A stretch of DNA of 64,000 nt from an uncultured Clostridia bacterium (lineage in GTDB: Bacteria; Bacillota; Clostridia; Oscillospirales; Ruminococcaceae). The stretch is taken from positions 1 to 64,000 of the forward strand of contig CAOKWH010000007.1 of NCBI GenBank assembly GCA_948473085.1. The letters run 5' to 3'. This document shows, piece by piece, positions 51,353 through 53,769 of this stretch (positions are counted from its first letter, which is position 1; every line of letters begins with the position of its first letter). The notes beneath the pieces were generated by a model, which was not told the DNA's origin, ran no database searches, and was given only the letters and a program-made list of their open reading frames with translations. Position numbers and translations under genes: made by a program.

Positions 51353-52267
51353 TTGATTTTGATTATCTATGTAGTAAAGAATGGGGATTCCCTCAGCCAG
51401 ATTGCCGAAACCTATGGGGTCAGCCAGCAGGAGCTGATTACGGCCAACCAGCTCAACTATCCCGACCGGCTGGTGGTGGGCCAGGCACTGGTTATCCCCA
51501 CCCAGGGGGAGGGCATCCACATTGTGGCCCGGGGGGAAACGCTGTTTTCCATTGCCGCCATGCATGGCCTGGACTTTGAGGAGCTGATGGCCGCCAACCC
51601 GGAGATTGTCAACCCCAACAGCATCTATATCGGCCAGCAGATTGTGATTCCCGGCGTGACGCCCGAGCTTTCGGACAGTATTGATGTAAACGGCTATGCC
51701 TATTCCACCATGAACCGGGAAACCCTCTCCCGCACCCTGCCCGACCTGACCTTTTTGAGCATTTTCAGCCATGACGCCCGGCCCAGCGGCCGCCTGGCCA
51801 CCACCAGCGACGGAGCCATGATTACCGCGGCCTATTCCGCCGGGGCAGGGCCGATTATGGTGGTTACCAACATCCGGGAAGGGGGCAACTTTGATAGCGG
51901 GCTGGCCAGCTGGCTGCTCACCGATATCGAAACCCGGGACCGGCTGATTGAGGATATTGTATCGGTGGCCACCGAGAAGGGCTACTACGGCGTGGATATC
52001 GACTTTGAGAATGTATACGGCGGCGACCGCGTGGCCTACAACGAATTTTTGCGCATCCTCTCCCAGCGGCTGCACGCCAACGGGCTGATCCTCACCACGG
52101 CCATTGCCCCCAAGACCTCCGCCAATATGACCGGAATCCTCTACGAGGGGCACGACTACAACGCCCACGGCCAGTATGCCGACCGGGTGACATTGATGAC
52201 TTATGAACAAGTCCGATTGACTGTATTAACCTCCCTTGGCGGGGCTCAGTCCTCAAACTTTAGGTAA
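51353..52267 (+). pseudogene. SleL/YaaH-like LysM-LysM-GH18 glycosidase, interrupted at about 52205 by the integrative element
   Basis: Two LysM units; GH18 site YYGVDIDFENV; ends VTLMTYE then unrelated QVRLTVLTSLGG. Confidence 0.85.
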
Positions 52268-53769
52268 AGGGTGAGGGCTGGGGGGGTATCGCGGTCGGGG
52301 CGGAGGTAGTCAATCCGCCGTAAAACGGTTTTGAGCAGCCGGTTTTTTTCCAGGGCCGAATTTAGATGCAGGTAGGTGTCCAGCACCGATTGGATCCTGG
52401 GTATCAGGGCAGCTGCTTGTGCCTCTTTTGTCTGTGTAAGCCCCCGTTGCTGCTCCAGCTGGGCGGCAGTTTCTGCCAAAGCAGCAAGCTGCTCCTCCAG
52501 ATGGGTGCGCCGGGAGACGAATGTACTTTTGTCATAGATGCCCTGTTCCAGCAAGTCAAACAGGTTCCCCAGCTGGCGCTGGAGGCGCTCCTGTTCCCGC
52601 CGGAGCTGGACAAGCTGTTGTTCGGTGCGCTTTATCTCATCGGCTATCACATTCCTTTCCGATTCTGTATGACTGAACGCCGATAGGCTCTGTCTGAGCG
52701 CTTCCAAAAGCTGTAATTCCAATGTTGCCACATCGGTATACTGGCAGGGGCAGCCCGGTGTAACACAGTACATCGACCCACCCCGCGCATTGGTCTGCCG
52801 CTTCATGGCATAGCCGCAAAGTTGGCATTTCATCAGCCCGGAAAAGGGGTTTTGCGGCTTGTATTTCTTGGTGGTGTGTACCAGGGCAGAGCTTTTCAGC
52901 TTCTCTGCCGCCTGGTACCACTCCTCTTCCGAAATAAGCCCCTCATGCAGGCCGTCAATCAAGGTATATTCACCAAATGCCTTGACAGGACGGATTACCT
53001 TTTGGACGCCATTCTCAAAGACCTTGACCTTTGGGCGATACCCTATCTTTATTTTACCCATATAGACCGGGTTTGACAAGATTTTTTGTACGGTTGACCC
53101 GCTCCAGAAGTGCTTTTTCTGGGTGCGGTAGCCCGAATTGTTCAGGACAGTGGCAAGCTCCCCGGTGCCCAGGCTATTTTCCCCCAGATAGAGGGAATAG
53201 ATCAGGCGCACTGTATCGGCGTCGGTGTTGGGGATGAGGGTATAGCCCTTCTGGTCGGGCAGCTTCTGCTTCTCATAGCCAAAAGGAGGGATACCGCCAA
53301 TATATTTGCCCTGCTTGGCCGAAGCCTGCCGCCCCCGCATCAGGCGGCGGTTGATGGTTTTCAGCTCCCGGCGGGACATATACAGGCCAAATTCAAAATA
53401 TTCCTCATCAAATTCGTCGTTGGGGTCATACACCTTCATGGGTGTGATAATCTTGGTGCCGTTGTACTGGAATGCCTTTGCCACCGCGCCCTGGTCCTGG
53501 GTGTCCCCTCTGGCCAGACGCTCAATTTCCACCACCAGCACCCCGTCCCAATCCCCGGCGCTTACCTCCCGGAGCAGCTGCTGCATCACCGGGCGCCCGG
53601 CAATACTGTCGCCGGATACCACCTCCCGGTAGATGGCCTCTATTTGCAGTCCCAGGCGTTGGGCGGTTTCCCACAACAGCTGTTCATGGCGGATGAGCAC
53701 ATCCTCCTCAGCCTGGCCGGGGTGGTCGCTGTCCTTGCGGGATTTGCGCAGATACATACAGTAGGGCAT
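52246..53769 (-). CDS. Large serine recombinase (site-specific integrase)
   Basis: MPYCMYLRKSRKDSDHPGQ; SGDSIAGRPVMQQLL; zinc ribbon CQLCGYAMK...CVTPGCPC; coiled coil. Confidence 0.95.
   Translation of the reverse strand: MPYCMYLRKSRKDSDHPGQAEEDVLIRHEQLLWETAQRLGLQIEAIYREVVSGDSIAGRPVMQQLLREVSAGDWDGVLVVEIERLARGDTQDQGAVAKAFQYNGTKIITPMKVYDPNDEFDEEYFEFGLYMSRRELKTINRRLMRGRQASAKQGKYIGGIPPFGYEKQKLPDQKGYTLIPNTDADTVRLIYSLYLGENSLGTGELATVLNNSGYRTQKKHFWSGSTVQKILSNPVYMGKIKIGYRPKVKVFENGVQKVIRPVKAFGEYTLIDGLHEGLISEEEWYQAAEKLKSSALVHTTKKYKPQNPFSGLMKCQLCGYAMKRQTNARGGSMYCVTPGCPCQYTDVATLELQLLEALRQSLSAFSHTESERNVIADEIKRTEQQLVQLRREQERLQRQLGNLFDLLEQGIYDKSTFVSRRTHLEEQLAALAETAAQLEQQRGLTQTKEAQAAALIPRIQSVLDTYLHLNSALEKNRLLKTVLRRIDYLRPDRDTPPALTLYLKFED

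What the first reader, a model, noticed from the sequence alone, without database searches (positions are those of the whole stretch)
51353..53769. Prophage-like element interrupts a SleL/YaaH-type spore germination gene (candidate skin-like developmental intervening element)
Seen: a + strand ORF with two LysM units and a GH18 domain keeps its active site (YYGVDIDFENV) and runs to VTLMTYE, where this family normally continues WGY. It then turns into unrelated QVRLTVLTSLGG and stops. The serine recombinase gene ends at 52246 on the minus strand, about 40 bp away. Known: serine recombinases of intervening elements in sigK (skin) and other sporulation genes excise in the mother cell and restore the gene. 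The host keeps yabP, yabQ and a SpoVB-like gene, and two cortex-lysis-type genes lie just upstream. Inference: attL is near 52190-52215, and precise excision would restore a full cortex-lytic enzyme.
Basis: partly seen in the sequence, partly recalled or inferred. Interest (0 to 1): 0.87.

Follow-up and report, generated by a model that had tools for sequence, protein, structure and literature searches.

The report
Prophage splitting a spore-cortex enzyme gene
A complete-looking virus genome sits inside a gene for a spore-wall-digesting enzyme in such a way that cutting it out exactly would restore the enzyme, and at least sixteen related bacteria have the same gene split within the same dozen codons, which suggests a recurring, reversible gene switch like the known 'skin' element of sporulation.

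Summary
The window has the LysM2-GH18 N-half (SleL/YaaH/YdhD type) ending MTYE at 52207. The missing C-half (WGYRYGEPMAVAP...) lies on another contig of the same genome (G000:C35, 4057-3617, minus), behind the prophage's other end. The ends share a 10-bp core, GACTTATGAA (52198-52207); joining there restores the frame, and the rebuilt attP is an inverted repeat centred on GA (52205-52206). The element (at least 42.9 kb) is a contractile-tail prophage carrying the genome's only full large serine recombinase (LSR). A congener keeps the intact gene at the same locus.

The target is recurrent: 17 genomes in four families have it split, 16 at one of three exact crossover points, by at least three LSR lineages, with elements from 3.9 to at least 43 kb. 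In two species pairs sharing an element, the C-half is under strong purifying selection (omega 0.008 and 0.026), as expected if excision restores function.

Not shown: that excision is tied to sporulation. Intact and split alleles coexist within a species, so a plain prophage using a conserved attB remains a live rival. Best reading: a new target gene for sporulation intervening elements.

The parts
51359..52207 (+). N-half of the SleL/YaaH-type gene: two LysM units and the first part of GH18, up to MTYE
   Evidence: C-half is outside the window at G000:C35 4057-3617 (-)
52198..52207 (+). core GACTTATGAA shared by attL and attR
   Evidence: the other copy is G000:C35 4064-4055 (-)
52205..52206 (+). 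predicted crossover dinucleotide GA (Glu codon), centre of the attP inverted repeat
   Evidence: Symmetry 16 of 20; same base in eight genomes
52208..52222 (+). element-side arm of attL, CAAGTCCGATTGACT, inverted partner of AGTTAATCGGACTT at attR
   Evidence: Sequence
52246..53808 (-). large serine recombinase (520 aa), only full-length one in the genome
52208..64000 (.). left part of the prophage; it goes on to C7:86896 and, after a gap, C35:12320-4065
59953..60159 (+). weak candidate for the recombinase's small partner protein (possible directionality factor)
   Evidence: Profile match E = 0.02 only; ribosome-binding site GAGGTGATTTTTAAAATG
61186..62202 (+). RecE-like exonuclease of the prophage
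   Evidence: PHROG 434
62215..63096 (+). RecT-like annealing protein of the prophage
   Evidence: PHROG 148
49250..50650 (+). host gene with a SpoIID-like domain and three PG_binding_1 domains, conserved upstream neighbour of sleL

Best explanation
A temperate, contractile-tail phage has integrated with its own large serine recombinase into codons of the invariant MTYEWGY motif of a SleL/YaaH-type spore cortex-lytic gene. attL and attR share a 10-bp core, and precise attL x attR recombination would remove at least 42.9 kb and restore the full enzyme in frame (shown by sequence). This gene is a recurring target across the order (shown). In at least some species the split gene is kept useful because the element is cut out when the gene is needed, most likely in the terminal mother cell as for skin and SPbeta (inferred). 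A small acidic partner protein of the recombinase may give direction to the excision (inferred).
For: In-frame C-half behind the shared core in the same genome. attP palindrome with its centre at the same base in eight genomes, and two further exact positions in eight others. Intact orthologue with the same upstream neighbours in G002. Only one full LSR in the genome, at the junction. One LSR clade for all 11 full-length site A/B recombinases tested, and other LSR lineages converging on the same codons. Strong purifying selection on both halves in two species pairs that share an element whose dS matches the host's. Elements down to 3.9 kb without recognisable phage structural genes. SpoIVA in the host.
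Against: No evidence on timing: no reads, no expression data, no convincing sporulation promoter seen. Intact and split alleles coexist at 97-100% identity within a species, as expected for a mobile phage. LexA-box-like sequences lie upstream of the LSR in G453 and G656, which points to SOS control there. The directionality factor is only a candidate, and weak in the window. The two halves of G000 lie on different contigs.
Confidence: 0.6

Rival explanations
1. Ordinary lysogeny: the conserved codons MTYEWGY are simply a convenient attB. The prophage knocks the gene out in lysogens, excises only on phage induction, and the gene is kept by the many uninfected cells.
For: Full structural gene set in G000; intact and split alleles within one species; LexA-box-like sequences upstream of two LSRs; the LSR clade also has members without a sleL half beside them.
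Against: Small elements without recognisable phage structural genes persist. In two species pairs the element diverged along with the host, yet the C-half has almost no non-synonymous change. In the G294/G096 cluster (10 member sequences) the representative is split and no intact allele above 90% identity was listed.
Confidence: 0.33
2. The gene is dead or dying: a non-excisable remnant has split it and the C-half is a fossil.
For: In G597 the nearby C-half piece has several stops; in G084 the symmetric crossover would shift the frame.
Against: In the window's genome both halves are open, the frame is restored exactly and the LSR is intact. C-half omega is 0.09 between G000 and G001 and 0.008 and 0.026 in the two pairs.
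Confidence: 0.04
3. Assembly artefact: the N-half and C-half were separated by a wrong join.
For: In G000 the halves lie on different contigs, with a break in tail-fibre genes.
Against: In eight other genomes both halves lie on one contig: G084, G273, G294, G096, G567, G635, G556 and, on a 1.55-Mb contig, G334. The cluster of the window's own N-half has three member sequences on seven contigs, and its representative ends in the same unrelated tail.
Confidence: 0.02

Closest known systems
SPbeta prophage in spsM, Bacillus subtilis (PMC4191935)
   Same: Full prophage with a serine recombinase inside a sporulation gene; precise excision restores the gene; recombinases of SPbeta-type phages are distant relatives of this one (about 29% identity)
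   Different: Different target gene; there excision during sporulation was shown by experiment, here it was not
skin element in sigK, B. subtilis and C. difficile (PMC5025042)
   Same: LSR element splitting a mother-cell sporulation gene, with symmetric att half-sites around a short core
   Different: Different gene; skin is defective, this prophage looks complete; sigK-adjacent LSRs of relatives G096 and G294 fall outside the sleL clade
gin in gerE, B. cereus (PMC5595907), and vfbin/vrin in spoVFB/spoVR (named in PMC4191935)
   Same: Intervening elements with serine recombinases; gin shows that phage genes are not needed, as in the 3.9-5.6 kb elements here
   Different: Different genes; gin has three recombinases, here one is next to the junction
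yin element in yabG, C. botulinum (PMC10747680)
   Same: Prophage-like LSR element in a sporulation gene, polymorphic between strains, candidate directionality factor small and acidic
   Different: Described there as unique to one strain; this target is hit in at least 17 genomes
Catalogue of LSRs and their targets (PMC10083194)
   Same: Describes distantly related LSR clusters converging on one target gene
   Different: Main text does not mention germination, LysM or sporulation targets; its supplementary tables were not readable here and may list this attB unlabelled

Membership tests
Sporulation gene-intervening element | Element lies inside the coding sequence of a sporulation or germination gene | tested here: met
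   Between MTYE and WGY of a SleL/YaaH/YdhD-type gene; the function is by family
Sporulation gene-intervening element | Precise recombination between end repeats restores the reading frame | tested here: met
   Core GACTTATGAA, joined MTYEWGYRYGEPMAVAP; same in 15 other genomes
Sporulation gene-intervening element | Element codes for its own site-specific recombinase | tested here: met
   LSR 52246-53808, the only full one in the genome
Sporulation gene-intervening element | Directionality factor coded in the element | tested here: inconclusive
   Candidate small acidic family linked to the LSR clade; weak in the window
Sporulation gene-intervening element | Excision is confined to sporulation or the mother cell | not testable with these tools
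   No reads or expression data; only indirect support from selection
Sporulation gene-intervening element | Host forms spores | tested here: inconclusive
   SpoIVA and an intact sigK-like gene present; spore formation itself not observed
skin element (sigK) | Inserted in sigK | tested here: not met
   sigK-like gene is intact in G000 (C9:3133-3795)
SleL/YaaH/YdhD family | Two LysM domains plus GH18 with DxDxE | tested here: met
   best structures 4s3j and 4s3k for the intact congener protein and for the C-half
SleL/YaaH/YdhD family | Cortex-lytic activity | not testable with these tools
   Needs an enzyme assay
Large serine recombinase prophage | LSR with resolvase, recombinase and zinc-ribbon domains, plus phage structural genes | tested here: met

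The most novel reading that the evidence does not exclude
Splitting of sleL/yaaH by recombinase elements is a widespread, repeatedly invented developmental switch in these bacteria. Different recombinase lineages converge on the same few codons, some elements have shrunk to a recombinase, a directionality factor and a few cargo genes, and in some species (G182, G241) the halves now sit among ribosomal and housekeeping genes, so that restoring the enzyme would need a chromosome-scale rearrangement in a terminal cell.
Probability: 0.3. Interest if true: 0.87.

Novelty: new member of a known kind. Interest (0 to 1): 0.72.

Why it matters
If excision is tied to sporulation, this adds a frequent target to the short list of known sporulation intervening elements (sigK, spsM, spoVFB, spoVR, gerE, yabG in the papers searched). 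It would mean that germination capacity in many, mostly uncultured, spore-formers depends on a phage recombinase. It also gives natural replicates (17 genomes, three exact crossover points, several recombinase lineages, element sizes from 3.9 to at least 43 kb) for asking how a phage attachment site becomes a developmental switch. The recombinases, their palindromic attP sites and a candidate directionality-factor family are directly testable in E. coli.

Tried and rejected
The attP of G000 and two related attP palindromes were not found in IMG/VR, so there is no free or circular form to show. A search of IMG/VR with the N-half alone gave nothing. The named-genome scan kept only the 80 best matches, all of them near full length, and did not name the host. 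I looked by eye for sporulation-type promoters upstream of the recombinases and found nothing I would defend. The idea that this LSR clade is dedicated to sleL was rejected: only 4 of 80 viral loci of the clade carry a sleL half next to it, although provirus trimming may hide some. For G084 the symmetric crossover (core CTTAA) would shift the frame; an ACCT core keeps it but is not symmetric, so it is an exception. G430, G483, G304, G335, G597, G525, G647, G071, G025, G257 and G191 were not counted as split because of contig ends, a missing C-half or decay.

Full report
WHAT IS IN THE WINDOW. At 51353-52267 (+) an ORF encodes two LysM units and the first part of a GH18 domain, with the active-site stretch YYGVDIDFENV, running to VTLMTYE and then into an unrelated tail. 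Pfam finds LysM twice and GH18 profile positions 81-181 of 317. The LSR gene is at 52246-53808 (-), with all three LSR domains and PHROG integrase family 95. It is the only full-length LSR in the genome; a 138-aa fragment lies elsewhere.

THE MISSING HALF. A GH18 search of the same genome gives exactly two places: this one, and C35:3686-3991 (-), profile positions 211-315. The C35 sequence reads ...AGTTAATCGGACTTATGAATGGGGATACCG..., that is TYEWGYRYGEPMAVAP... on to a natural C-terminus. attL here reads ATTGATGACTTATGAACAAGTCCGATTGACT. The shared core is GACTTATGAA; joining restores MTYEWGYRYGEPMAVAP in frame. The rebuilt attP, AGTTAATCGGACTTATG|AACAAGTCCGATTGACT, is symmetric at 16 of 20 positions about GA, window 52205-52206. 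Random stretches give a best symmetry of 9.1 on average and at least 14 in 0.5% of trials.

THE ELEMENT. From the core to the end of C7 is 34.7 kb, and C35 adds 8.3 kb up to attR, so at least 42.9 kb, with an unread gap in tail-fibre genes. It holds RecE- and RecT-like genes, portal, head maturation protease, major head protein, tail sheath, tape measure and baseplate, and endolysin and holin on C35: a contractile-tail prophage that looks complete.

EMPTY SITE. A congener, G002, has the uninterrupted gene (458-aa frame, 75% identical over the N-half) with upstream neighbours like those of the window. In another congener, G001, the gene is split at the same codon. Its N-half contig carries the same kind of upstream gene as the window's 49250-50650, and beyond its C-half lie genes (dxr-, cdsA-like) that also lie beyond the intact gene of G002 (gene names by my reading of the sequences). 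In G000 the gene after the C-half is a DUF6291 gene instead.

POLYMORPHISM. Proteins 97-100% identical to the G001 N-half exist both intact (P0006, 436 aa, cluster of 260 sequences) and ended at MTYE (P0004, 290 aa, cluster of 175), and once with a different tail (P0003). A second lineage shows the same with P0008 against P0009, 99.3% identical. The cluster of the window's own N-half has three member sequences on seven contigs, and its representative is the split form. So the site is used repeatedly or reversibly within species. Around the G294 gene, I picked out 27 of the 120 closest protein clusters as short (280-357 aa); all end or turn off within MTYE-WGYTYG, three with contigs over 100 kb.

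RECURRENCE ACROSS THE ORDER. In 301 genomes of the family, 50 have an N-half match that reaches its end, of which 14 have frames under 380 aa; in 399 genomes of the order, 103 and 16 (the samples overlap). After searching for the C-half, 17 genomes have both halves apart: G000, G001, G294, G096, G243, G203, G177, G241, G182, G273, G084 (one family), G334, G656, G453 (a second), G567, G635 (a third), G556 (a fourth). The rebuilt attP centres fall at the same base: site A, GA in the Glu codon, in eight (G000, G001, G294, G096, G243, G656, G334, G453); site B, four codons on, in six (G203, G177, G241, G182, G635, G556); site C, TA at the Tyr codon, in two (G273, G567). In these 16 the joined frame is restored. 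G084 is the exception. Symmetry is 12-18 of 20 in most and weak in G453 (9) and site C (11). Distances between halves on one contig run from about 3.9 kb (G294, G096) through 5.6 (G273, G556), 6.4 (G635), 9.7 (G567) and 16 (G084) to 20.5 kb (G334).

RECOMBINASES. An LSR lies next to one half in 15 of 17, in G177 as a partial gene at a contig end. In a maximum-likelihood tree the 11 full-length LSRs from sites A and B fall in one fully supported clade (100/100) with a single other member, from G094; the site C pair and G084 lie elsewhere, as do the LSRs beside split sigK in G096 and G294. At least three LSR lineages have therefore converged on these codons. The clade itself is broader than this target.

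SELECTION. G294 and G096 share a colinear 3.95-kb element (two lipoprotein-like genes, the LSR, one small ORF). Element genes have dS 0.25-0.43 and neighbouring host genes 0.13-0.33, as expected if element and host diverged together. The C-half has 28 synonymous and 1 non-synonymous change (omega 0.008), the N-half 33 and 3 (0.023), the LSR omega 0.109, the lipoproteins 0.17-0.37. G453 and G656 repeat this: C-half 0.026, N-half 0.081, LSR 0.053, with LSR dS 0.485 against 0.47-0.53 for the gene halves. A C-half without its own start should not be this constrained unless it is regularly joined to its N-half. The alternative, that both lineages were element-free most of the time and gained related elements late, is made less likely by the similar dS but is not excluded.

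CANDIDATE DIRECTIONALITY FACTOR. G294 and G096 carry a conserved 69-aa acidic ORF (pI 4.5) on the strand opposite the LSR, omega 0.14. An iterated profile finds relatives in G243 and G556 and in 60 of 80 viral loci with clade LSRs, all 61 hits opposite the LSR, and none in 80 chromosomal control loci (1.04 Mb) or 30 loci of LSRs taken from these genomes. The profile was built partly from those viral loci, so 60 of 80 is not independent; the clean controls are. There is no significant Pfam or PHROG match. The window's best candidate, 59953-60159, is weak (E = 0.02). The known factors SprB and CD1234 are also acidic (PMC5025042). The function is a guess.

SPORULATION CONTEXT. SpoIVA is present in G000 and in ten of the other eleven split or congeneric genomes tested with it (not found in G273, 84% complete). 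A sigK-like gene is intact in G000; it is split in G096, and in G294 only an N-half was found. Known intervening-element targets in the papers searched are sigK, spsM, spoVFB, spoVR, gerE and yabG (PMC4191935, PMC5595907, PMC10747680); no SleL/YaaH case was found. Most subscription papers are not in that library.

VERDICT. Structure and precise reversibility by sequence: about 0.95. Excision exploited in sporulation: about 0.55. Combined best explanation 0.6, with ordinary lysogeny the main rival.

Noticed in passing
L161/L162 (G096:C2:37252-37626 and 85151-85504), L163 (G294:C4:56713-57066): sigK is split near codon 113 in two relatives, with an LSR and biotin-type genes near the N-half. In G096 the C-half lies about 48 kb before the N-half on the same strand, the wrong order for a simple excision.
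   Followed up: partly
L055/L056/L152 (G241), L059/L060 (G182): The two sleL halves sit beside housekeeping genes (rpsL operon after the N-half, rplU before the C-half) with no LSR next to either half, yet the att cores and arms are kept. Recombinase in trans, rearrangement or assembly error; unexplained.
   Followed up: partly
L053:4097-4303, L054:4096-4293, L062:3251-3445, L207:5738-5902 and IMG/VR loci L222-L301: Unnamed family of small acidic proteins linked to this LSR clade (60 of 80 loci, always on the opposite strand, none in controls); candidate recombination directionality factor.
   Followed up: partly
L207 (G556) 2095-5615: The 5.6-kb element in G556 carries what look like potassium-uptake (TrkH/TrkA-like) and permease genes, no obvious phage genes.
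   Followed up: no
L204 and L205 (G656, G453), upstream of the LSR: LexA-box-like palindromes GAACAAATGTTC and GAACATTTGTTC precede the recombinase, which suggests SOS control there.
   Followed up: no
window 53796-53832: Inverted repeat AACTGCCATAGG/CCTATGGCAGTT followed by TTTT overlaps the first ATG of the recombinase gene; possible attenuator, the true start may be the later ATG (MPYCMYLRKS).
   Followed up: no
window 52246-53808 and L066:15343-16863 (G001): The recombinase lies at the attL end in G000 and at the attR end in G001, although the two are 63% identical and use the same site.
   Followed up: partly
L052 (G273) and L201 (G567): Closely related site C recombinases (1108 bits) occur in genomes of two different families, which suggests horizontal transfer.
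   Followed up: no
L004:2608-3336 (G000:C35): Just beyond the C-half in G000 lies a DUF6291 gene with phage-family matches, where congeners have other genes; perhaps a second mobile element.
   Followed up: no
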